Of a stretch of DNA of 64,000 nt, positions 34,313 through 48,978 are shown in pieces. The position numbers were made by a program, and so were the translations under genes. This DNA comes from Cyanobacteria bacterium CYA. GTDB lineage: Bacteria > Planctomycetota > Phycisphaerae > Phycisphaerales > UBA1924. Where the stretch lies: positions 186,001 to 250,000 of the forward strand of contig RHKP01000003.1 of NCBI GenBank assembly GCA_008363215.1, read 5' to 3'. Numbering within the stretch: the first letter of the stretch is position 1; each line of letters opens with the position of its first letter. The notes under the pieces were generated by a model that saw only the letters and a program-made list of their open reading frames with translations, did not search any database and was not told the origin of the DNA.

Positions 34313-36379
34313 TCACGGGCACCCAGCCGAGAACTCAGCCAGGAACGTCTGCACGTCGAAGAAGTTGAACATGTCGTCGTCCACGAAGTCGGCGCGGTCG
34401 TCGTGAGCGCTGAACCACGCCAGGAACGTCTGCACGTCGAAGAAATTCAGTTGGTCATCGCCGGTGGTGTCGGCGCGGCAGACCGGCGGGGCAGCCATCA
34501 GGTTGACGTACTGCGTGCCTGCGATGTTGTTGAAGTTGATCGCGCTGACCTCACCCAGGTTGTCGCCCGCGGGCAGCCCGCCGATGACCTGGTTGGAGAC
34601 GTAGTCGAAGCCGCCGTTGGCGACCCAGCCGGCCAGCAGAATGTCCTGCTGCCCGTCCCAGCCCAGTTCGACCAGATCGATGCAGATTTCGATGCCGGTG
34701 TTGACCGCGTCGCTGCCGGCTGCGCTGCTCGCACTCACCCCCGCCACGTTGGAGTTGTCGATCGCGGTGCGAAGCAGCCCGCCGGCCGGAACGTCGTCCG
34801 GATCGGCAAAGCCCTGGAGAATGTCCAGCCCCAGATCCGCCGAAGCACGCGGAGCGTAGTTCGAGTACAGGTTGGCCAGGAAGCCGTCCTGCAAATCGAA
34901 GCGCGTGCCCGAGAAGTCCATGACTTCAACCGGGTTGTCCACCGGCTGCCCCGTGCCCGTCGTCACGTACCCGCCGAAGTAGCACCCGTAGTCGGCCCGC
35001 AGGGCGAAGAACGGGTCGACGATCGGCCCGTTGGTGCGCAGCACGGCGCAGTCCGTGTAGTTCTGCAGGTTGCCGCTGCCCCCGTCGACGCCGTTGTTGA
35101 CGTTGAGCCAGTAGTCGGCCGCGAAACCATCATCGAAGATCAGGCCGGCGTGCCGGTTGAGTCCGTTGAAGGAGATGTCCACGTTGTCGTTGCGCAGCGT
35201 GCTCTGTCCGCCCGGAGCGCAGTCGATGAACAGACTCAACTTGTTGTAGTTCACCTCCATGTTGCCGCCGATGAAGATGTACAACTTGCCGTTGACCTCG
35301 TCGAGGTACGAGCGGACGTTGTCCACTTCCGAGCCGTACCCCCAGTTGGCGTCGGGCGAAACCGGGGAGGACTGCGACGGGCTGCCGATCACCCCAAGCG
35401 TGTTCGAGTTGTCGACGCCCAGGGCGTAACCACCCGAAAGAGCGCCCGCGTTGCCCGCGCCGTAGCCGGCCAGCGAGCCAAGGTCGGCAATCGTGCCGGA
35501 AATCGGCCCGGCGTACGCACGCGGCACATTCGGCGTCGTCCCGTCATCACTGTCATGGTTCCACGAGTCGGCCGACACGACGAAATCAGCCCCGAAGCCC
35601 GCGTCAAAGTCCAGCCCGCTCTGCCCCGTGACGATGTACCCGCCCGCGCCCGCGCCCGTGCCCAGCGTCGTTGAGCCCGTGCCCGCGTTGTTGTCGCTGT
35701 CCAGGAACAGGTCCAGCCCGTTGCCGTTGTACTCGAGGTTGCCGGCCACGAAGACGTACAGGTACGTCCCGTCGGTGGCCACGTACACCGCGTCGACTTC
35801 CGACCCGCCGCCGTTCGACCCGGCCCCGTCCACCGTGCCGTCGGTCTCGTTGCCGAAGCCCGTGTAGTTGGTCTGGAGGAACTTGGCAGCCCCATACGCA
35901 GCGTCGCGGGCGCCGTCGACCGTGATCGCGCCGGCCACCGTTGCCGTCACGGAGATGTGCGACGTGCCGCCGATGCCCGTGAAGTCCGGCGCATTGCCGA
36001 TATTGCCCGTGTCAATCGTCAGCCCGGAGTGGATGATCTGGTTCGACATGAACGTCCGGTCACTCGAGTTGACCCACCCCGCCAGTTTGAACTCTGCCGT
36101 CCCGCCCGACGATTGCAGCGAGCCCCCGATAGCCGACAGCGGGATCTTGAACTCCACTCCCGTGGTCACGTCGGCCGGCGGGTCACCGAAATCGCCGCCG
36201 GTGAACATCCCGGCGACGTTATCGCCGAAGCCGGTCGGCTGGTTCTGGCTCCACAGCACGTCGCCGTAGAACGACCCTTCCGTTCCCGGGCTGAAGATGC
36301 CGTCCACGGTGGGTTGGGCCATGGCCGACCCCGCGACCGAAGCGAGAACGGCCGCGCACAAAACACGCTGATTCTTCAT
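34313..36379 (-). CDS. Large secreted protein with internal repeats and GC-dockerin module
   Basis: A 688-residue exported protein. Signal peptide KNQRVLCAAVLASVAGSAMA, mature start QPTVDGIFSPGTEGSFYGDV. Two internal units of about 150 residues share GSEVDAVYVATDGTYLYVF or GSEVDNVRSYLDEVNGKLYI, then GNLEYNGNGLDLFLDSD or GNMEVNYNKLSLFIDCA, then a GLDFDAGFGADFVV or LIFDDGFAADYWL piece, so the gene arose by internal duplication. The last 55 residues are a two-repeat dockerin-like module (DDQLNFFDVQTFLAWFSAHD, DDMFNFFDVQTFLAEFSAGC) ending in GCP. GAGGGAG precedes the ATG and a strong terminator follows. The function of the body is unknown; a surface or matrix role is likely. Confidence 0.82.
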   Translation of the reverse strand: MKNQRVLCAAVLASVAGSAMAQPTVDGIFSPGTEGSFYGDVLWSQNQPTGFGDNVAGMFTGGDFGDPPADVTTGVEFKIPLSAIGGSLQSSGGTAEFKLAGWVNSSDRTFMSNQIIHSGLTIDTGNIGNAPDFTGIGGTSHISVTATVAGAITVDGARDAAYGAAKFLQTNYTGFGNETDGTVDGAGSNGGGSEVDAVYVATDGTYLYVFVAGNLEYNGNGLDLFLDSDNNAGTGSTTLGTGAGAGGYIVTGQSGLDFDAGFGADFVVSADSWNHDSDDGTTPNVPRAYAGPISGTIADLGSLAGYGAGNAGALSGGYALGVDNSNTLGVIGSPSQSSPVSPDANWGYGSEVDNVRSYLDEVNGKLYIFIGGNMEVNYNKLSLFIDCAPGGQSTLRNDNVDISFNGLNRHAGLIFDDGFAADYWLNVNNGVDGGSGNLQNYTDCAVLRTNGPIVDPFFALRADYGCYFGGYVTTGTGQPVDNPVEVMDFSGTRFDLQDGFLANLYSNYAPRASADLGLDILQGFADPDDVPAGGLLRTAIDNSNVAGVSASSAAGSDAVNTGIEICIDLVELGWDGQQDILLAGWVANGGFDYVSNQVIGGLPAGDNLGEVSAINFNNIAGTQYVNLMAAPPVCRADTTGDDQLNFFDVQTFLAWFSAHDDRADFVDDDMFNFFDVQTFLAEFSAGCP

Positions 36380-36936
36380 GAAAAATCTCCCTCTGCAAAT
36401 CAGACCGACCCCGTGTGCGGGGCTTCGGACACTGTGAAACAAGTGCGCGGCGCGCCTCCCGAGCGGCCGCGAACGGATCCCTCTGAACCCGAAAGCATAG
36501 TGAAAAGCGATTCCCAAGGCCAGCGAACGCGGGTGGATTGGCACCGATCTGGGACCGGTAAGACAGGTCGCGTCGCACGGGTTCAGTCAAATCTCGGGCG
36601 CGCGAGGGCGCCTGTGAAGTCCCCGGCTCCGGGCGGCACGCCGGGCGGGTTCTTGTGGAACATCCGGCGAGGAATGGTGCTGTCGCCCACTCTCTCTCGC
36701 TGGCGCGTCGGGCTCGTACCGGAGGCTCCCTCGCCGACGCGTCGGCCCATCAGCACCGCAGGCGGGACGCATCGAACGGGGTTCGTATCCTGCGAAGCCC
36801 GGACCGCAATCGAGTCATTGACCCCGACGAGAAGTGCCTGTAAGATCCGCAATTGGAGTCGCCTGCGCGTTCTGCGCGGCCGGTGCGACCGGGGGATCGA
36901 CTCCACGGGGACCACGTATCGAGAGATTGGGACACC
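36380..36936. other. 557-base divergent gap between a dockerin gene and a prepilin-like gene
   Basis: It holds the leader of the minus-strand dockerin gene and, near its right end, a good plus-strand promoter (36818-36846). Short open frames across it are Arg/Pro-rich and lack start signals. Confidence 0.5.
36818..36846 (+). promoter_or_regulatory. Sigma-70-type promoter for the 36937 prepilin-like gene
   Basis: TTGACC (36818-36823), exactly 17 bases, TAAGAT (36841-36846). Transcription should begin near 36853, giving an 84-base leader. The promoter at 60028 has almost the same boxes and spacing. Confidence 0.65.
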
Positions 36937-37938
36937 ATGCCGACCGCACGCGCCCGCCGGGGCCAAGCCGCGTTCACGTTGATCGAACTGCTGGTAGTCA
37001 TCGCCATCATCGCCCTGCTCATCGGCATCCTGCTGCCGGCCCTGTCCAAGGCCCGAAAGTCAGCCCAGCAGATGGGCTGCCTCTCAAACACTCGGCAGAT
37101 CAGCCTGGCGATGAACGGGTACACAAGCGACAACCGAGAGTGGTACCCGTTACTCCCCTTCACCAACGCCGGACTTGCGGGGTGGACCAACAGCAATCCT
37201 GGAGTCAATGGTGGTCGGCCGTATCTCACCGATCAGGGTGTATTCGGCGGGGTCGCAGGTCTTTTCAGCACGTTCCAGATTGGGCAGGGCATTGCCAGCC
37301 GCCCGCCCTCGGGGGATGTGGGACACACCGGAAGCATCGTACCTGGTCGAGGCTTCGTGTACGAAGCGTACCCGAACGGCGTGACTACCCCCATCCTCGC
37401 TTCCTATCTGGAGGGCTTCCCGGTTCTCACCTGTCCAGCGGATCGAGAGACGATCTACTGGGGTCGGTTCTACGGTTCCTTGGAGCGCAACCTGCCCGCG
37501 GCCGTAGCGGCAAACCGCACCAAAGTGCCTGAGGCTCCCGGCTCGTCCGAAGACGTCATTGGCTACAACATCAGTTACATGTACATCGCAGGGTTCCGCG
37601 CCGGTGACCCCGAAATTCTCAAGCCGGCGCCTCTCTGGGGCGATGAAACGCAAGGGCCCGATGTCGGCGTCAACTCCTGGTACGGACAGGACGTGGACGC
37701 GGAATACGTCGGGCTCTCCGTGACCGCTGACGACGGACACCGCCACTATGCCAAGGTGGATAATCACGGAGATGCAGGCGCGAACTGGGCCTTTACCGAT
37801 GGGCATGCTGAGTTCGTCACGGGCAGCGTCCACAACGTTTTCTTTGAGAGACCGACTCCTGCCAAGCCCCATGTCAACGGCCAGAGCGTGAACGTGGTCA
37901 ATGAATACCGAAGCGATACTCTCCACACATTCGATTGA
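36937..37938 (+). CDS. Prepilin-type N-terminal methylation protein with H-X9-DG-like end
   Basis: A 333-residue pseudopilin-like protein. After a basic leader ([12 protein letters not shown]) comes the type IV prepilin cleavage site and helix, [20 protein letters not shown], with the conserved Glu5. The body is globular ([40 protein letters not shown]). Near the C-terminus [20 protein letters not shown] is the planctomycete H-X9-DG-like motif (ten residues here). Such proteins are expanded in planctomycetes; they are presumed cargo or structural parts of a type II secretion or pilus-like machine, but no function is proven. It is separate from the 40-48 kb prepilin cluster, whose members lack the H-X9-DG ending. 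The 3' end overlaps a small gene on the other strand by 41 bases. Confidence 0.85.
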
Positions 37939-40499: not shown

Positions 40500-41579
40500 A
40501 TGGCAAAACTGGGTCTCAGTCGTTTTGGGCACAAGAGAGCGCTCGGCTTCACGCTCATCGAGTTGCTCGTCGTCATCGCGATCATCGCGCTGCTCATCGG
40601 CATCCTGCTCCCGGCCCTGGCCAAGGCACGCCGCGCCGGCCGCGGCGCCGTCTGCAAGTCCAATCTGAAGAGTCAGGGCACCGGCATGGCGTCCTACGCC
40701 ACCGACTTCCAGGACAAGATCGCCTCGTATTCCTGGCACGCCGGCATGGTACCCAACAGCGAGTTCATCGATTTCGACCCGGGGCCGAACGGCTTCTCGG
40801 ACGACATGCTGGCCGCTCAGTGGCAGAACACTGAAATCCTCCGTCGCCGCACCGGGCGCACCGAAGGCGCTGGCCGAATCCTCAGCAACACGCTGACCAT
40901 GCCTCACCGCATCTACAACCACCTCGTCCTCTTCGACTACCTCTCCAGCCAGTTGCCCGAAGCGATCGCCGCCTGCCCGGAAGACCGCAACCTCCTGCTC
41001 TCGGCCGCCAACCCGCTCGACTCGAGCCTCTGGGCTCAGATGCGCCCCGAGTACCCCAACGCCAGCCAGCACAATGGCGAGCGCGTCGCGCAGCGCTACC
41101 CCTTCTCTTCCACCTACCAGACCGTCCCGGCGACATGGGTGCCTGACACCGGTGGGTATGTGCGTCCCATCGCCAGCACCACGCACCTGTTCAGCACCGC
41201 CTCCGTCGACGGAATCTACGGCAGGCGCAGGATGAGCCAGGTCATGTTCCCCGGCGCCAAGGTGCAGATGTTCGAGTTCAATGACTACCACGGGAACACC
41301 AAGAACCCGTTCTACGCCTACCAGGAGGCCGCCTGCCAGATCCTCTTCTTCGACGCCTCGGTCCGCGCGATTCCGTCGGCCGATGCAAATCTCGGTTGCG
41401 ACCCCGGCACGCCCACCAGCCCTGACACCTTCTACTACGCGTACACACCATTGAACACGGAACCCGATCGGCTCAACGACGACTTGGTTCCCGTCCTCTA
41501 CCGGTTCACCCGTGGTGGTCTGGCCGGCGTCGACTTCGGTGCCAAGGAAATCAACACGGGCCAAGGCAACGTGCCCTGA
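40500..41579 (+). CDS. Prepilin-like protein, 'TRGG' family (copy 1, plus strand)
   Basis: A 359-residue pseudopilin-like protein. A basic leader ([15 protein letters not shown]) precedes the cleavage site and helix [20 protein letters not shown]. The body contains [48 protein letters not shown] and [20 protein letters not shown]. It ends with [22 protein letters not shown] instead of H-X9-DG. Three minus-strand paralogues at 45143, 46334 and 47523 share all these blocks; the one at 46334 is closest, with 47-base exact identities. GAAGGGGTG precedes the ATG, and a promoter lies 170 bases upstream. I infer a secretion-apparatus or surface-fibre subunit; no function is known for this family. 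Confidence 0.82.
40959..41005 (+). repeat. 47-base exact inverted repeat arm A (partner 46920-46966)
   Basis: This tract in the 40500 gene is identical to the reverse complement of 46920-46966 in the 46334 gene. It encodes part of the [15 protein letters not shown] block. It is one of two such exact tracts in the gene pair. Confidence 0.8.
41283..41329 (+). repeat. 47-base exact inverted repeat arm B (partner 46578-46624)
   Basis: Identical to the reverse complement of 46578-46624 in the 46334 gene; encodes the [16 protein letters not shown] block. The conservation of synonymous positions suggests recent duplication or gene conversion. Confidence 0.8.
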
Positions 41580-41630
41580 ACGCCTGACGGCGCAGGCTCC
41601 CAGACCTGACCTCATGTCAAGCAGGCATCC

Positions 41631-41665
41631 ACAGCCCCGGCCAAACAGGTCGGGGCTGTTCCTTT
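41631..41665 (+). terminator. Probable Rho-independent terminator after the 40500 gene
   Basis: ACAGCCCCG (41631-41639) pairs with CGGGGCTGT (41651-41659) around an 11-base loop, followed by TCCTTT. It is 52 bases after the stop. The T-tract is weak. Confidence 0.6.
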
Positions 41666-41932
41666 GGAGGAAATTAGCGAAGGACAAGTGAACTCGGCCC
41701 GGGTGGAATGAGGGCTCGTCCTCCTCACCCTGCCCCGCCTCCCGGTCTCCCGGCGTTCGGTATGGTTCCTCCGACCGCCCCCTTTGTTCCGGCCTGCGAA
41801 AAAGCGGATCTGAAAAGCCGGCTCACCCGAACAGACCCGTGCAGGACCGAGGTTCTCTCGGTACACTGTTTCTCAATGGCCCCGTTCGGGGTATCAGGGC
41901 GGTTCATCCACCCGGTTGATTTTGTCGTTTCA

Positions 41933-41950
41933 CCCGGTCCTTCGACCGGG
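41933..41950 (+). promoter_or_regulatory. 7-bp hairpin directly before the ribosome binding site of 41967
   Basis: CCCGGTC, loop CTTC, GACCGGG, immediately followed by GAGGGGG and the ATG at 41967. A stem this close to the ribosome binding site could affect translation, or mark the 5' end of a processed mRNA. Confidence 0.4.
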
Positions 41951-41966
41951 GAGGGGGTATCTGGAT

Positions 41967-42893
41967 ATGACACGCCGGAATGCGTTCACGCTGATCGAGT
42001 TGCTCGTCGTCATCGCAATCATCGCGCTGCTGATCGGGATTCTGCTCCCGGCGCTGAGCAAGGCCCGCGGCGCAGCCCAGAAGATCGCCAGCGGCGCCAA
42101 CCTCAAGGAGTGCTCGACGATCCAGTTCCTCTACGCCAACGACTTCAAGGACGAGTGGGTCAATCCGTTCGAGCGTGACGGATGCAACGGGGTCAGTTCG
42201 GCCTGGCTCTGGGTAGTCGGAGATGAGTGCCGCGTCGGCTGGGATTATCAGAGCGGTTCGCAGCAGTCTGAGAGTTACGGGTGGCACTGGCTGGCCCACA
42301 CGCTCTATGCCTATGACCAGGTCGAGTCGCGTCTGGGCATCATCGCCGCACCCGGCGACCGCGCGCTCCAGAACTGGCTGCGCGAGAACCGCGATGCCAA
42401 CGCTCAGTCCAACCTGAACTGGATCTTCCCGACCAGTTACTGGTACTCGCCGGTCTTCTGGCAGGACAAGGCGCGCTTCACCAGTTTCGTCGAGCAGTTC
42501 GCCGGTCCGGCGGCCGACTTCTGGTTCAAACGTAACCGCGTCTCTGACGTGCTCTACACTACGCAGAAGGTCGTGCTGATGGAGAACAAGGACTTCGTCA
42601 AGCCCGACCAGCCCCAGTTCAACAAGCCGGGCGCCGAGCCGCAGACCATGCTGGCCGACGGCAGCGTTCGGGCCGTCTCGCTCAACGAGATCATCGCCGA
42701 AACAGACCTTCAGACTTCGTTCTCCCAACCCGATCGTGCCGATGGGCTCTGGTATCCCTCCGGGCGATTCGCCCCAGGCACCGCATTCACCCGGCAGATG
42801 TACGGCGAGCCGCAGGGCTTTTACTGGGACGTCACCCAGCCCGCATATCTCTGGCGCACCCGCTTCGGCATCACCGGCCGTGACTTCAGGTAA
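41967..42893 (+). CDS. Prepilin-like protein, 'GRD' family (copy 1)
   Basis: A 308-residue pseudopilin-like protein with a very short leader (TRRNA) before [20 protein letters not shown]. The body is rich in Trp, Tyr and Phe: [60 protein letters not shown]. It contains [20 protein letters not shown] and a 'LADGSVRA' strand, and ends [24 protein letters not shown]. The gene at 43176 shares the same plan and the TR.G..GRD ending. Both lack H-X9-DG and the TRGG tail, so I treat them as a second family. It is the first of four closely spaced genes (13, 30 and 3 bases apart) with two small membrane proteins, clearly one operon. Confidence 0.8.
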
Positions 42894-42905
42894 AGGAACT
42901 CACTC

Positions 42906-43145
42906 GTGAACGCTCGCAAGGGGTTGATGATCGGGCTCGTGATCGTGTGTCTTGGACTGGCGGTCCTCACCTATTTCGCCCTGTCGCCCAAGAAGGCGAC
43001 CGAATCGTCCGAGTACGAGAAGATGAAGGCCCGATCGGACGAGATGACTCAGAAGGCGCAGGAGGCCGCGCCCAAGCAGCCTCAGATTCCCGAGGAGGAC
43101 TTCACGCCGCCGACGGGCAAGGGCCCGCAGCGCGTGGGAGGATGA
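42906..43145 (+). CDS. Small single-pass membrane protein between two prepilin-like genes
   Basis: A 79-residue protein. The N-terminus is basic (MNARKG), then one transmembrane helix (LMIGLVIVCLGLAVLTYFAL, residues about 7-26), then a charged, Glu/Lys/Pro-rich tail (YEKMKARSDEMTQKAQEAAP, EEDFTPPTGKGPQRVGG) that should face the periplasm. AAAGGA lies about 8-13 bases before the GTG/ATG region. It has the same plan as the 103-residue protein at 44190, although the sequences differ. I do not recognise a family. Its position right after a prepilin-like gene suggests an accessory of that protein, for example an assembly or anchor factor; this is inference. Confidence 0.7.
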   Translation: MNARKGLMIGLVIVCLGLAVLTYFALSPKKATESSEYEKMKARSDEMTQKAQEAAPKQPQIPEEDFTPPTGKGPQRVGG

Positions 43146-43175
43146 GCGCCACAGCGGCGGAGATCGGAGGGGGAC

Positions 43176-44186
43176 ATGGGCCCACGTCGGGCGTTCACGC
43201 TGATTGAGTTGCTCGTCGTCATCGCGATCATCGCGCTGTTGATCGGCATCCTGCTACCAGCGCTGGGAAAGGCGCGGCGCAGCGCCCAGAATCTCCAGAG
43301 CGAATCGAACCTCAAATCGCTCGCCCAGATCAGTGCGCTCTACAACAACTCCAACTCTGATTCATTCATCAATCCCTTCCCGCAGAACTACGTGGCCGGC
43401 GGAAACGTGGGCGGCGACTGGGCACGCGCCAAGAAGCCCGGCTATGGCGGGACGTGGATCTTCAGCGGCCCGGGCGCCTGGTACAGCGAGATGTACGCCT
43501 TCCACTGGTACAGCCTCGTGGCCAGTGAACTCAACGAAGGCGACTGGGCGAGCGAAGTGCAGTTCGCTCCTCTCGATCCGGCCCCCTACCGTCGCTTCGC
43601 AGACATGTTCTCGAACGGATACGCCGACTTCTGGCGATGGATCTGGGACTCGTCCTACTGCCTCAGCCCGACGCTGTGGTTTGCGCCGGAGCGGTATGAC
43701 GACGACTTCCGCCCCGCGCCGGTCAGGGCCAACGCCCCCTCCTCCCTGGTCCGCCGCAACCGCGTTGATCACGTCGTGTTCACATCCTCGAAGGTCACCA
43801 TGTGGGAACGCTTTGATACCACCGTGCAATCTCGAACCGCGTCGACGGTGATTCCCGGGTCGAACATCACGGTGGGTTTCGGGCAGCAGCCGTACTCACC
43901 CAACTGGAACAACCCCTACGCGACGCCCAACGTCGCAACGGCCGACGGGAGCGTCGCTCGCGTCGACATGGCCGACCTCTACGATCGCACCGCCGACAGC
44001 AATCCCAACCGAGCCATCGAATGGAAGCCCACGGACGTCTGGAACCCGCCTTCGACTACCGTGCTGCGAGCCTACGGCATGGACCAGGACAACCTGGAGA
44101 ACGGCACCACCGAGAACCCCGGCAGTTACCCGGCCTTCTTCTGGGCGACCCGCAACGGCGTCAAGGGGCGTGACATCCCAAGGTGA
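43176..44186 (+). CDS. Prepilin-like protein, 'GRD' family (copy 2)
   Basis: A 336-residue pseudopilin-like protein. A five-residue leader (GPRRA) precedes [20 protein letters not shown]. Shared blocks with the 41967 protein are [20 protein letters not shown] followed by INPF, an aromatic middle ([40 protein letters not shown]), [31 protein letters not shown], and the ending [27 protein letters not shown] precedes the ATG. It lies 30 bases after one small membrane-protein gene and three bases before another. The role is unknown; the Trp/Tyr-rich surface could bind polysaccharide or another protein, which is speculation. Confidence 0.8.
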
Positions 44187-44189
44187 GAC

Positions 44190-44501
44190 GTGGACCCGGG
44201 TCAGAAGCAGAAAGTCATTGGCGCCCTGGCTGTGCTGCTGCTGCTCGCCGGCAGCCTGCTGATCGTCCGCGCGTTGCTCCCACCCCGGTCCGCAGGCGGC
44301 GGGGAACTGAATGAGCGGGCCCAACGCGGACTGGGTGCGGCCGGCGCACTCAACGCCGATCCGTCCCAACTTCCCCCTCGCGGAAACATGACCGACGACG
44401 AGTACGCGCGGCATCTCATGCACCTGCGCGAGGAGGCCGACCGTCGCGCCGGCGAGAGCATCGAGCCCGGCTCAGCCCGAGGCCCGGCTAAAGGCGGGTG
44501 A
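44190..44501 (+). CDS. Small single-pass membrane protein after the second GRD-family gene
   Basis: A 103-residue protein starting with GTG three bases after the prepilin-like stop. One transmembrane helix (VIGALAVLLLLAGSLLIVRA, residues about 9-28) follows a short Lys/Gln N-terminus; the tail is polar and helical (GGGELNERAQRGLGAAGALN, MTDDEYARHLMHLREEADRR). It parallels the 79-residue protein at 42906 in topology and in position right after a GRD-family prepilin gene, but I see no clear sequence match, so the resemblance may be convergent. It ends the plus-strand operon. I do not recognise a family. Confidence 0.7.
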   Translation: MDPGQKQKVIGALAVLLLLAGSLLIVRALLPPRSAGGGELNERAQRGLGAAGALNADPSQLPPRGNMTDDEYARHLMHLREEADRRAGESIEPGSARGPAKGG

Positions 44502-44611
44502 ACCCCACCGTCAATCCGGATGCAGGAACGGAGGCGTCGCGCCCCAGGGCAGCCGAACGAGGCCGCCCACTACGGCATGGTCGCTGGCCCGGGGCTGCGC
44601 GTGCATCGGCG

Positions 44612-44944
44612 TCAACAGGCCGCGCGGACCTGCCCGGAGATCTGGGAGAGCAGAACTCCACCCCGCTCGGTGATCGTCAGTTCGTCGCGCAGCCCGCCGA
44701 CCTGGCGGATGTACCCGGTTTTGAGCAGGCGTTGGCGCAGCGGCCACCACTCGTTGCCGAAGCCGAGCCACAGTTCGTCCTCGAAGCGTCCGCTGTGCCC
44801 GTGGTCGAGCAACTCGAGGGCGCGTTTCAGGCATTCGGTCTGAGTGTGGGTGAGATTCAAGTCCAACCCCTCCTGCGTGGCGTCCTCTGTTGCCTTACAC
44901 AACGCTTCAGAGGGCCGCCCGGTTGCATCGGAGTCATGGGTCAC
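44612..44944 (-). CDS. Small protein of unknown function at the convergence of the prepilin operons
   Basis: About 110 residues if it starts at GTG 44944; the frame is open to 45079, but a TATAAT box at 44978-44983 falls within that extension and argues for the shorter form. Two parts are visible: an acidic helical N-terminus (DLNLTHTQTECLKRALELLD) and a C-terminal stretch WWPLRQRLLKTGYIRQVGGL then LTITERGGVLLSQISGQ, which could be a winged-helix-like unit as found at the ends of small regulators. No catalytic motif is seen. It lies between two converging prepilin groups but has its own promoter. The family is not recognised, and a regulatory role is only a guess. Confidence 0.5.
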   Translation of the reverse strand: MTHDSDATGRPSEALCKATEDATQEGLDLNLTHTQTECLKRALELLDHGHSGRFEDELWLGFGNEWWPLRQRLLKTGYIRQVGGLRDELTITERGGVLLSQISGQVRAAC

Positions 44945-44977
44945 TTGCTGGAATCTCTTGTCAGACAACAAGTTGCG

Positions 44978-44983
44978 ATTATA
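44978..44983 (-). promoter_or_regulatory. TATAAT -10 element for the 44612 gene
   Basis: An exact TATAAT on the minus strand, with transcription expected near 44971 and a leader of about 27 bases to GTG 44944. The leader contains the inverted repeat CTTGT-N6-ACAAG (44958-44973), which overlaps the expected start and could be an operator. No good -35 element is seen at 16-18 bases. Confidence 0.5.
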
Positions 44984-45142
44984 CGGCGCCGGGCCCGACC
45001 GACGCCACACCCGACAAAGACCATTCTTGCACGAGCATAATCTGCCGAAACAGGTTGACAAAAGACCGCCGGGCGACAAAACAAGCCATACCCCGTTCTC
45101 GGACCATCACCTGTTGTCGAACCCCGGAAACAACCCGACAGA

Positions 45143-46153
<1,011 letters not shown>

Positions 46154-46257
46154 GTGTTTCCCCGTTCCGCTCGGCCACTGGCTCCGAGAGGACTGCCATT
46201 GAACCAGCAAGACTGGGCCGGAGCAAGCGCCGCCCGGGGTAAAAGTCCCCCTCGCCG

Positions 46258-46281
46258 GTGGCACGGGTGTCTCGGTGCCAC
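46258..46281. promoter_or_regulatory. Stem-loop between two minus-strand prepilin-like genes
   Basis: GTGGCAC (46258-46264), a 10-base loop and GTGCCAC (46275-46281). It could be a processing or attenuation signal within the three-gene group. No T-tract follows on either strand. Confidence 0.4.
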
Positions 46282-46333
46282 GGGGCGTCCCGCCCGTGAG
46301 CCCTCCCCTCCGGTCGGGTCCGGCTCTGCCACT

Positions 46334-47392
46334 TCACTGCGGCTGCCCGGTGTCGATCTCGCTGCCTCCGAAGTCGATGCCCGACAGCCCGCCGCGGGTG
46401 AAGCGGTACAACACCGGGACGGGATCGTCATTGAGCCGATCGGGCTCGGTCGACAGCGGCGTATACATGTAGTAGAAGGTGTCGGCACTGGTCGGATCGC
46501 TGGGGTTCCAACCCCGGTTTGCGTCGGCAGAAGGCACCGAGCGCACCGAGGCGTCAAAGAACAGGATCTGGCAGGCAGCCTCCTGGTAGGCGTAGAACGG
46601 GTTCTTGGTGTTCCCGTGGTAGTCGTTGTGCTCGAACATCTGCACCTTGGAGCCGGGGAAGACGACCTGACTCATGCGGCGTTTGCCGTGCATGCCGTCG
46701 GCCTGAACTACGGTGAACAGGTGCGTGGTCGCAAAGATCGGCGAGACCCAGGCCTGTCCGGCGTAGGCCAGCCCCTCAGGCGCCCAGGCGTTCGGGATGG
46801 TTTGGTAACTCGATGAGAACGGGTAGCGCTGCTGCACGCGCTCCCCGTTGAACTTGTTGAGGCTGATGCCGGGCCAGGCGGGCATCGATGCCCACAGCGA
46901 GGGGTCCAGCGGACTGGCAGCCGAGAGCAGGAGGTTGCGGTCTTCCGGGCAGGCGGCGATCGCTTCAGGCAACTGGCTGGAGAGATAGTCGAACAGGACG
47001 AGGTGGTTGTAGCGCCGGTGCGGCATGGTCAGCGTGTTGTTGAGAATGCGCCCTTCTCCATCGACACGGCCCGTGCGGCGTCGGAGTATTTCGGTCTGCT
47101 GCCACATGGCCGCCTGCATGTCGTCCGGGAAGCCGTTGGCCGGCCCGTTGATCCACTCGTTGATGACGACCATCCCGGCGCGCCACGAGTAGGACGCGAT
47201 CTTGTCCTGGAAGTCGGTGGCGTACGAGGCCATGCCCGTACCGGTGTTCTTGAGATTGGACTTGCAGACGGCCCCGCGCCCGGCGCGGCGCGCCTTGGCC
47301 AGAGCCGGGAGCAGGATGCCGATGAGAAGCGCGATGATCGCGATCACCACCAGCAGTTCGATAAGCGTGAACCCTCGCCGAGGCTTGTGCAT
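46334..47392 (-). CDS. Prepilin-like protein, 'TRGG' family (copy 3, minus strand)
   Basis: A 352-residue pseudopilin-like protein. The leader MHKPRRG precedes [20 protein letters not shown]. It is a close paralogue of the 40500 protein: [80 protein letters not shown] and [20 protein letters not shown] are the same or nearly so, and it ends [31 protein letters not shown] lies nine bases before the ATG, an excellent ribosome binding site. It has two exact 47-base inverted matches to the 40500 gene. The function is unknown; the low divergence points to recent duplication or ongoing conversion. Confidence 0.82.
46578..46624 (-). repeat. 47-base exact inverted repeat arm B (partner 41283-41329)
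   Basis: Reverse complement of 41283-41329, in the coding region for [16 protein letters not shown] of the 46334 gene. Confidence 0.8.
46920..46966 (-). repeat. 47-base exact inverted repeat arm A (partner 40959-41005)
   Basis: Reverse complement of 40959-41005, in the coding region for [15 protein letters not shown] of the 46334 gene. Confidence 0.8.
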
Positions 47393-47522
47393 GGCCTGTC
47401 CTCCTTTGGCCGACCAGAGCCGCCGGCCCGGCTTCCAATGAACCAGAGCACCTACAAAAGTGCAAATCCGAAAAATGACGATCGCGCGCAGGTGACGCGC
47501 GACGTCGAGGAGGGGAGTTCTC

Positions 47523-48575
47523 TCAGTCTCGCGGCTGCCCGGTGTCGATTTCCTTGCCGCCGTAGTCGATGCCGGTCAATCCCCCGCGTGTCCAGCGGTA
47601 CGACACCGCCAGCAGTTCGGCCGGATCGCCCAGCGGCCTCGGTTCGAGATCCAGGGGAGTATAACGGCACATCGACGGATTCGGCGAAGTGGGGTTCTGC
47701 GGGTTCCAGCCGCGGTTGGCGTCGCTGGTCGCGTTGGCGCGCACGGATGCGTCGAAGAACAACTGATTGCAGCGCGCTTGCTGATAGGCGTAAAAGGCGT
47801 ATTCCTTCGAGTTGTGCCAGTCGTGGAACTCGAACATGAAGACCTTGCTGCCGGGGAAGACCACTTCGCTCAACTTGCGTCGTCCGGCCCACCCGTCAAC
47901 GTTCATGACCCAGAAGAGGTGCGTGGTGGTGTGCGGCCAGACGTAGTCGCCGTTGTCGGGCGCCCAGGCCTGCGGAATCGTCTGGTACGTTGACGCGAAG
48001 GGCCAACGCTGACGCACCTCGAGTTGGTTGAAAGATCCGGCGATGTCGGCGCTGTACTGTGGGTCAGCCTGTGCCCAGAGCGACTCGTTGAGCGGGTCGC
48101 TCTGCGAGAGAATGAGCCCGCGATCTTCCGGGCAGGCGGCGATCGATTCGGGCAACTGGCTGGAGAGATAATCGAAGAGGATGAGGTGGTTGAAGCGCCG
48201 ATGCGGCATCGTCGTCCAGTTGTTGAGGATCTTGTAGTCCCCGTCACCGCGTCCGGTCAGACGCCGCAGAATCTCCGTCGCCTGCGCCATGCCGGCGCGG
48301 ATGTCGCTGGAATGCGGCCCGTTGATGGGGGGCCACGGCGTGTTGTACGTCTCGCCGGAACGCCAGGTGTACGACGTGACTTTGTCCTCGAAGTCGGTGG
48401 CATACGACGCCATTGCCACTCCGAGTTGCTTGAGGTTGCCCGCGCACACCACGCCGCGTCCAGCCCGGCGCGCCTTGGCCAGCGCCGGAAGCAGGATGCC
48501 GATCAGCAACGCGATGATTGCGATCACCACCAGCAGTTCGATGAGGGTAAATGCACGATGGCGCGGCCTGGACAT
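47523..48575 (-). CDS. Prepilin-like protein, 'TRGG' family (copy 4, minus strand)
   Basis: A 350-residue pseudopilin-like protein. The leader MSRPRHRA precedes [20 protein letters not shown]. Family blocks: [100 protein letters not shown] and the ending [23 protein letters not shown] central [20 protein letters not shown] replaces the [20 protein letters not shown] of copies 1 and 3. It is the first gene of the minus-strand group. GCAGGAGCA lies before the ATG at 48575; the frame is open far upstream but without a leader-like sequence. Role unknown. Confidence 0.82.
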
Positions 48576-48978
48576 AGGCGTGCTCCTGCTCCCGACGAGC
48601 TCGGTCGACCGCCCCATCCATACGCGAACGGGGAGGAAAGCCCGGAACCGGGCACACGCATTGGAACCGAAAACCGTGCCCGTGTCAATGCCGGGCCCGG
48701 GTGTTGGGGCCCGGTCGGTCGCGGACGCCGAGGGCCTGGCTCGCCGGTACGTGGCGTGCCACCCATCCCCCCGTATGCCGGCACTCGCCGTCGGCACGCC
48801 CGGGTCGCACGCCGTGAGTTCGGGATATTCGCCCTCCGGCGCGGCTCGCGCCCCAATGTTTTCGGTCCGGGTGCGCCGCCCCCCCTCCGTCGGCCGATGA
48901 AAGATGTCCGGAGGAAGGTCCGGGCGTGTCGTTCTATGCTCGCGTCGGCGGGGGCGGCCGCGGTGGCTGGAGAAGTGC
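48576..48978. other. 403-base divergent gap between prepilin group and GH15 gene
   Basis: It should hold the promoter of the minus-strand prepilin group and of the plus-strand GH15 gene. A TATGCT box near 48931 could serve the latter. No convincing -35 element or gene is seen; the open frames are Arg/Gly/Pro-rich shadows. Confidence 0.4.

What the first reader, a model, noticed from the sequence alone, without database searches (positions are those of the whole stretch)
40500..48575. Cluster of six prepilin-like proteins in two new-looking families
Between 40.5 and 48.6 kb there are six genes encoding the same N-terminal methylation helix ([20 protein letters not shown]) but bodies unlike the usual planctomycete H-X9-DG proteins. 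Four share one body plan (TRGG family) and two another (GRD family). Plus-strand genes converge on minus-strand genes around a small gene. No secretion ATPase, platform protein, secretin or prepilin peptidase is present, so this looks like a cassette of alternative fibre or tip subunits served by a machine elsewhere. Seen: motifs, layout. Known: such helices are processed by prepilin peptidase. Inferred: a variable-subunit locus.
Basis: partly seen in the sequence, partly recalled or inferred. Interest (0 to 1): 0.7.

Follow-up and report, generated by a model that had tools for sequence, protein, structure and literature searches.

The report
Pilin-like gene cluster with partner proteins
A planctomycete carries a cluster of six large pilin-like proteins that belong to one apparently undescribed branch of a known protein class, and the genes of one half of that branch are often followed by a gene for a small membrane protein that may help them work.

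Summary
In detail: six genes with an identical prepilin helix lie at 40.5-48.6 kb, four TRGG (T1-T4) and two GRD (G1, G2). They are not two unrelated families. Profiles of their bodies align over 255 columns (E=3e-19), and all 55 TRGG and 19 GRD bodies aligned end in T-x2-G-x2-G-x-D. The bodies keep a core module weakly shared with two ordinary single-copy prepilin-type proteins of this genome, so they look like a derived branch of the large planctomycetal prepilin-type class. Strong TRGG matches occur in 97 of 301 genomes of the order, all in one family.

TRGG genes multiply by tandem duplication. All six genes are under purifying selection (dN/dS 0.06-0.09), which argues against fast-varying subunits. 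A prepilin peptidase, secretion ATPases and secretins lie elsewhere in the genome.

Most likely: processed minor or tip subunits of a type-IV-filament-like machine. Cleavage and assembly were not tested; both structure predictions failed.

The parts
40500..41579 (+). T1, TRGG-type prepilin-like protein, 359 aa
   Evidence: N_methyl 30 bits; TRGG profile match; helix 24/24
41967..42893 (+). G1, GRD-type prepilin-like protein, 308 aa (TTG start at 41916 possible)
   Evidence: N_methyl 29.1 bits; GRD profile match
42906..43145 (+). p1, 79-aa one-helix membrane protein gene, 12 nt after the G1 stop codon
   Evidence: counterpart of the same length in G001
43176..44186 (+). G2, GRD-type prepilin-like protein, 336 aa
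   Evidence: N_methyl 29.5 bits; GRD profile match
44190..44501 (+). p2, 103-aa one-helix membrane protein gene, 3 nt after the G2 stop codon
   Evidence: 74% identical in L085/G001
44612..45079 (-). conserved small gene of unknown role between p2 and T2 (up to 155 aa; true start uncertain)
   Evidence: 81% identity over 148 residues in L085, 53% over 85 residues in L087; no Pfam match
45143..46153 (-). T2, TRGG-type prepilin-like protein, 336 aa
   Evidence: N_methyl 29 bits; TRGG profile match
46334..47392 (-). T3, TRGG-type prepilin-like protein, 352 aa
   Evidence: N_methyl 37.1 bits; TRGG profile match
47523..48575 (-). T4, TRGG-type prepilin-like protein, 350 aa (open frame extends to 49052)
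   Evidence: N_methyl 33.1 bits; TRGG profile match
36937..37938 (+). H1, neighbouring prepilin-type protein with an H...DG motif, outside the branch
   Evidence: N_methyl 30.7 bits; DUF1559 24.8 bits over positions 2-35 of 268 only; TRGG profile on its body only 4.7 bits

Best explanation
T1-T4 and G1-G2 are two sister subfamilies of one lineage-specific branch of the large planctomycetal prepilin-type proteins. The precursor is cut before F1 of [24 protein letters not shown] by the genome's prepilin peptidase, leaving an inner-membrane protein with a body of about 300 residues outside the cytoplasm. Most likely they enter a type-IV-filament-like structure (T2SS or pilus type) as minor, tip or decorating subunits, built by a machine encoded elsewhere. 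Many GRD proteins are encoded with a dedicated one-helix membrane protein whose outward tail probably holds, delivers or anchors the GRD body. TRGG genes multiply by tandem duplication while each copy stays under purifying selection, so the copies look like stable, specialised paralogues. Shown: family unity, distribution, duplication, selection, frequent partner pairing, machinery genes in the genome. Inferred: cleavage, filament entry, topology and role of the partner. The confidence given is for the whole mechanism; for the family statement alone it is about 0.9.
For: One branch: profile-profile E=3e-19 over 255 columns; each subfamily one side of a branch with support 100; end motif in 55 of 55 and 19 of 19. 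Prepilin class: N_methyl over cut-off in six of six; the first 41-69 residues of mature T1 match PilA and geopilin structures. Shared helix: of 52 prepilin-type genes recovered, 26 keep at least 20 of 24 helix residues and 17 are identical, with median pS 0.50 and pN 0.020, so the helix is held by selection on the protein, as expected if many bodies share one filament core or one machine. Machinery in the genome. Partner: 47 of 88 GRD (33 of 63 in loci fetched after the rule was set) against 3 of 88 on the reverse strand, 0.2 expected in shuffles, 1 of 58 after TRGG; all 47 have exactly one hydrophobic helix; N-flank more positive than C-flank in 39 of 47.
Against: No structure: both predictions failed (pLDDT 41.6 and 35.7). 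No prepilin-type gene shorter than 220 aa among the 52 has at least 20 of the 24 helix residues, so no matching small major pilin was seen. Genes found near ATPases or a secretin have other helices (6-13 of 24). No link between the cluster and any one machine was found. 41 of 88 GRD lack a partner by the rule, among them all 10 of genus g51 and all 6 of g25. Codon adaptation is ordinary (0.60-0.68; window median 0.61; ribosomal genes 0.57-0.77), so nothing suggests an abundant fibre.
Confidence: 0.45

Rival explanations
1. The helix is only a processed membrane anchor. The proteins stay in the inner membrane and act in the periplasm as binding or structural proteins, never entering a filament; p1 and p2 are part of such a membrane complex.
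For: No machine gene near them and no matching small major pilin. Many copies under steady purifying selection. In Tuwongella immobilis, N_methyl + SBP_bac_10 proteins were mostly found in both detergent-soluble fractions S2 and S3 (PMC8567305, passages), which does not show filaments; those proteins have the full DUF1559 domain, which these lack.
Against: A helix held almost identical in 17 proteins of one genome is more than an anchor needs.
Confidence: 0.38
2. A variable-subunit cassette: bodies diversify quickly or are swapped to change what the fibre binds.
For: Twelve genome-specific TRGG clades of 2-4 copies; stretches where T1 and T3 are more alike than T3 and its orthologue (0.93 against 0.88, 0.92 against 0.89).
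Against: dN/dS 0.062-0.087 and 88-94% identity between orthologues in the same order, inverted, in the sister species.
Confidence: 0.1
3. Surface or periplasmic enzymes that use a prepilin leader for export.
For: Large bodies with many conserved charged and aromatic residues.
Against: No enzyme family match in Pfam or NCBIfam; body profiles find nothing convincing among solved structures (best E 0.053 and 0.61).
Confidence: 0.05

Closest known systems
H-X9-DG-CTERM prepilin-type proteins (TIGR04294)
   Same: Same helix; a DG motif within a KV...DGS core that is weakly shared with two ordinary single-copy prepilin-type proteins of this genome
   Different: No TIGR04294 match at E<=1 in any of the six or in 19 TRGG; no H...DG motif by pattern; an end motif T-x2-G-x2-G-x-D
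DUF1559 / SBP_bac_10 (PF07596) of Planctomycetia
   Same: Helix, and about 30-40 residues after it (18 of 19 TRGG at E<=1; T2 25.6 bits passes the whole-protein cut-off of 23.3); large paralogous families; neighbours that are exported or membrane proteins (PMC8567305 passages)
   Different: Only positions 2 to 42 of 268 are matched; no full-length DUF1559 at E<=1e-20 in this genome
Pilin accessory proteins TfpX/TfpY/TfpZ (PMC11841053, abstract and passages)
   Same: Membrane proteins encoded downstream of a pilin gene
   Different: Reported there with three transmembrane helices and a globular domain; the partners here have one helix and a tail of median 54 residues. No sequence comparison was made
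T2SS pseudopilins and type IV pilins (GspG/H/I/J, PilA)
   Same: N-terminal helix with E5; the first 41-69 residues of T1 match PilA and geopilin structures
   Different: Bodies about 300 aa; no equivalog cut-off reached; not encoded with the machine

Membership tests
Prepilin-type proteins (PF07963, TIGR02532) | N-terminal methylation helix over the curated cut-off, with E5 | tested here: met
   Six of six
Prepilin-type proteins (PF07963, TIGR02532) | Cleavage by prepilin peptidase | not testable with these tools
   A peptidase candidate exists in the genome; processing is inferred
DUF1559 (PF07596) | Match over the whole domain | tested here: not met
   Best stretch covers positions 2-42 of 268; only T2 of the six passes the whole-protein score, on that stretch alone
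H-X9-DG-CTERM (TIGR04294) | The 22-residue H-X9-DG domain | tested here: not met
   No match at E<=1 in the six or in 19 TRGG members
GspG/GspH/GspI/GspJ and PilA-type equivalogs | Curated equivalog cut-off | tested here: not met
   Helix-region matches only, all below cut-off
Type IV filament subunits | Assembled into a filament | not testable with these tools
   Needs experiment
TfpX/TfpY/TfpZ accessory proteins (for p1, p2) | Encoded downstream of the pilin gene | tested here: met
   p1 and p2 follow G1 and G2
TfpX/TfpY/TfpZ accessory proteins (for p1, p2) | Three transmembrane helices | tested here: not met
   One hydrophobic stretch in p1, in p2 and in all 47 partners; criterion from a passage of PMC11841053

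The most novel reading that the evidence does not exclude
Planctomycetes use two-gene surface modules as a general principle: a prepilin-type body plus its own membrane-tethered partner (lipoprotein-like partners for DUF1559 in Planctomycetia-type genomes, one-helix membrane partners for GRD here). The partner selects or releases its body into a shared filament core, so that one machine can serve dozens of interchangeable heads.
Probability: 0.2. Interest if true: 0.7.

Novelty: new variant of a known kind. Interest (0 to 1): 0.45.

Why it matters
Planctomycetes hold tens of prepilin-type proteins whose role is unknown: 68 DUF1559 paralogues in Planctopirus limnophila, two of them essential (PMC10632474, passages), and 74 in Rhodopirellula baltica (PMC2754498, passages). 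Pili-like fibres that bind dextran were seen in P. limnophila and Gemmata obscuriglobus (PMC5394234, passages), but nothing I read names their subunits. A prepilin-type body with a co-encoded membrane partner gives a concrete interaction to test, and the shared, selected helix suggests that many bodies use one core or machine.

Tried and rejected
Structure: AlphaFold2 of TRGG (19 sequences) and GRD (15 sequences) gave mean pLDDT 41.6 and 35.7; no fold search was run on such models and both jobs are spent.

Operon reading: genes that follow TRGG at several loci proved to be 2-hydroxyacid dehydrogenase and class-V aminotransferase genes, i.e. shared genome position and not a functional partner. 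Other neighbours scanned were likewise housekeeping-like.

Promoters: a promoter-like pair seemed to precede each gene by eye, but the scan found 2 against 1.2 expected. A hairpin CCCCGTTCGGGG before G1 occurs once in the window with up to one mismatch, 1.27 expected; dropped as evidence.

High expression: codon adaptation is ordinary.

Limits. In some searches only the best 6-8 first-look candidates per genome were scored, so copy numbers and absences there are lower bounds. Cross-matches exist: the TRGG hit of G060 is its GRD place, and the GRD hit of G129 is a TRGG place; no count was corrected for this. The partner rule (55-165 aa, start within 260 nt, one 19-residue stretch of Kyte-Doolittle 1.9 or more, codon-position signal) was set after I had seen examples; the 63 genes from later loci are the fairer test. 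I fetched 60 GRD regions chosen from the list to spread over genera, not all. GRD genes with under 330 nt downstream, partial matches or scores under 60 bits were left out of the 88. For the tree and genus count one gene (L051) was added as paired by a relaxed rule, making 48 of 88. In one search, 30 loci were read, one gave no gene, 14 of 29 had a hit, and one of the 14 (L219) looks spurious to me; hence 13 of 29. 58 N_methyl places were reported for the genome; my script recovered 52 prepilin-type genes from the stretches fetched.
Full report
What is there. The window is bases 186001-250000 of contig C25 of a 3.57-Mb genome. A named relative is Phycisphaerales bacterium isolate PLA8; its contig has the same length (457817) as contig C5 of the same-genus genome G001, so I take the two as one (inference). 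Six prepilin-type genes occupy 40.5-48.6 kb: T1, G1 and G2 on the plus strand converge on T2, T3 and T4 on the minus strand. The same set exists, in inverted order, in PLA8/G001.

One branch, not two. Profiles of 4 TRGG and 2 GRD bodies already align (E=1.4e-7). With 55 and 19 bodies the alignment covers 255 columns at E=3e-19. T..G..G.D stands in the last 70 residues of 55 of 55 and 19 of 19. In a tree of 83 bodies each subfamily is one side of a branch with support 100.

Relation to the ordinary class. After the helix, 18 of 19 TRGG proteins match DUF1559 at E<=1; in the window proteins the match covers only profile positions up to 42 of 268, and only T2 passes the cut-off. Otherwise Pfam, NCBIfam and the PDB give nothing convincing for the bodies. 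With about the first 60 mature residues removed, the TRGG profile still finds two ordinary single-copy prepilin-type proteins of this genome, at 16.8 and 13.7 bits, against a best of 4.3 in 1320 shuffled bodies; the aligned part is the FPS-x-K ... DGS module. The GRD profile gives 12.8 and 11.3 bits on the same two (no shuffles were run for GRD). The neighbour H1 gives only 4.7 bits with TRGG and -0.9 with GRD, so the link to classical H-X9-DG proteins is indirect and weak. Full-length DUF1559 at E<=1e-20 was found in 2 of 59 genomes of the phylum, both of another class, and not in this genome.

Distribution. TRGG at E<=1e-30: 97 of 301 genomes of the order, 47 of 148 genera, all in one family; at least 20 more genomes of that family had no such match. 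Across the phylum at E<=1e-6: 10 of 392; six are strong, all in the family; the other four are weak partial matches, two in the family (one of them, G060, is its GRD gene) and two in another family of the order. GRD at E<=1e-10: 78 of 301, 77 in the family and one genome of another family with 7 matches; at least one of the 78 (G129) is a cross-match to a TRGG gene.

Duplication. One search holds 25 genomes of the family: 19 have TRGG and 13 of these have at least one tandem pair. The tree shows slots at the window locus: T2 and T4 each have one counterpart in G001, G002 and L087, while the T1/T3 slot is two genes here and in G001 and four in L087. Twelve genome-specific clades of 2-4 copies (support 82-100) speak for repeated duplication. 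The array lies next to, or within two genes of, one conserved gene (mnmG by its sequence, recalled, not tested) in the window, PLA8, L066, L087, L088 and L089; a second site, beside 2-hydroxyacid dehydrogenase and class-V aminotransferase genes, recurs in five loci.

Selection. dN/dS between the two species is 0.062-0.087 for the six genes and identity 88-94%. In two 90-base stretches T1 and T3 are more alike than T3 and its orthologue (0.93 against 0.88; 0.92 against 0.89), a hint of gene conversion that was not tested formally.

Helix. Of 52 prepilin-type genes recovered, 26 share at least 20 of 24 helix residues and 17 are identical; silent sites differ widely (median pS 0.50, pN 0.020 over 325 pairs). 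The 26 mature proteins are 220-351 aa long. Those in stretches around ATPases or a secretin have 6-13 of 24.

Machinery. One prepilin peptidase candidate (A24_N E=3.1e-31; catalytic half 25.3 bits, cut-off 26.5), 15 T2SSE-family matches, 13 over cut-off (the family also covers retraction and Tad ATPases, from recall), and 4 secretins. One secretin lies on this contig about 30 kb before the window, beside three short pseudopilin genes. Which machine would serve the cluster is unknown.

Partner genes. G1 is followed after 12 nt by a 79-aa and G2 after 3 nt by a 103-aa one-helix membrane protein gene. Of 88 distinct GRD genes with at least 330 nt downstream, 47 have such a gene by a fixed rule; 3 on the reverse strand of the same stretches; 0.2 expected from shuffles. 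Among genes from loci fetched after the rule was set: 33 of 63; earlier loci: 14 of 25. After TRGG genes 1 of 58; after other prepilin-type genes of this genome 7 of 44, five of them inside short-pseudopilin gene runs (L103, L126) and two (L113, L132) real-looking small membrane proteins. The 47 have a median of 88 aa, a median gap of 21 nt, one hydrophobic helix each, a more positive N-flank in 39, and a tail of median 54 residues with 15% proline. With L051 added by a relaxed rule, 26 of 37 genera have at least one pair; none of the 10 genes of genus g51 and none of the 6 of g25 has. The trait needs 17 changes on that tree (29.4 in shuffles), so it is lost, missed or gained repeatedly.

Context in print. 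Searches of the held open-access library for DUF1559 (4 papers), H-X9-DG (1 unrelated paper), Phycisphaer + prepilin (none) and SBP_bac_10 + Planctomycet (1 paper) showed no description of these two families; most subscription papers are not held. PMC8567305 (passages) reports 100 N_methyl proteins in Tuwongella immobilis, 91 of them with SBP_bac_10, spread around the genome and often flanked by genes with signal peptides, so linked neighbours as such are not new. In 29 DUF1559 genes from two genomes of another class I saw a small lipoprotein-like gene downstream in 13. TfpY (PMC11841053, abstract and passages) is the nearest functional precedent for a downstream pilin accessory protein, with a different topology.

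Verdict. A real, apparently undescribed branch of a known class. A filament role is somewhat favoured (0.45) over an anchored, non-filament role (0.38). The GRD-partner pair is the most testable new lead.

Noticed in passing
L140 1605-3125 (-), G000:C36 near 165248: The prepilin peptidase candidate has a clear A24_N domain but the match to the catalytic half lies about 290 residues further on, as if a long insert splits the enzyme.
   Followed up: partly
L222, L223, L224, L226 and others of L217-L245: In two genomes of another planctomycete class, 13 of 29 DUF1559 genes have a small lipoprotein-like gene downstream, some with a VTG.VTLDGKP-type stretch.
   Followed up: partly
window 44612-45079 (-); L087 13692-13946: A small gene conserved between the array and mnmG in two genera, without Pfam match; its end reads like a winged-helix DNA-binding domain by eye.
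   Followed up: partly
window 41880-41891 (+) and about 48640-48653 (-): Short GC hairpins with a GTTC loop lie before G1 and T4, and similar ones before relatives in L085, L086 and L087; in the window alone the motif is no rarer than chance.
   Followed up: partly
L113 1231-1965 (-) and L132 211-1005 (+): Two ordinary prepilin-type genes of this genome are also followed, at +2 and +17, by small one-helix membrane protein genes.
   Followed up: no
L134 265-951 (+): A 229-aa prepilin-type protein carries TRHGVAGVD, the end motif of the branch, without a TRGG or GRD body match.
   Followed up: no
window 40500-41579 and 46334-47392: T1 and T3, in opposite orientation, are more alike in two stretches than T3 is to its orthologue, a hint of gene conversion.
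   Followed up: partly
G000:C7 83880-88128: Three T2SSE-family ATPase matches in a row beside four prepilin-type genes.
   Followed up: no
window 34313-36544 (-): A large secreted-looking protein ending in two FFDVQTFLAxFSA repeats that look dockerin-like to me (recall); it has the highest codon adaptation of the 44 window genes picked (0.708).
   Followed up: no
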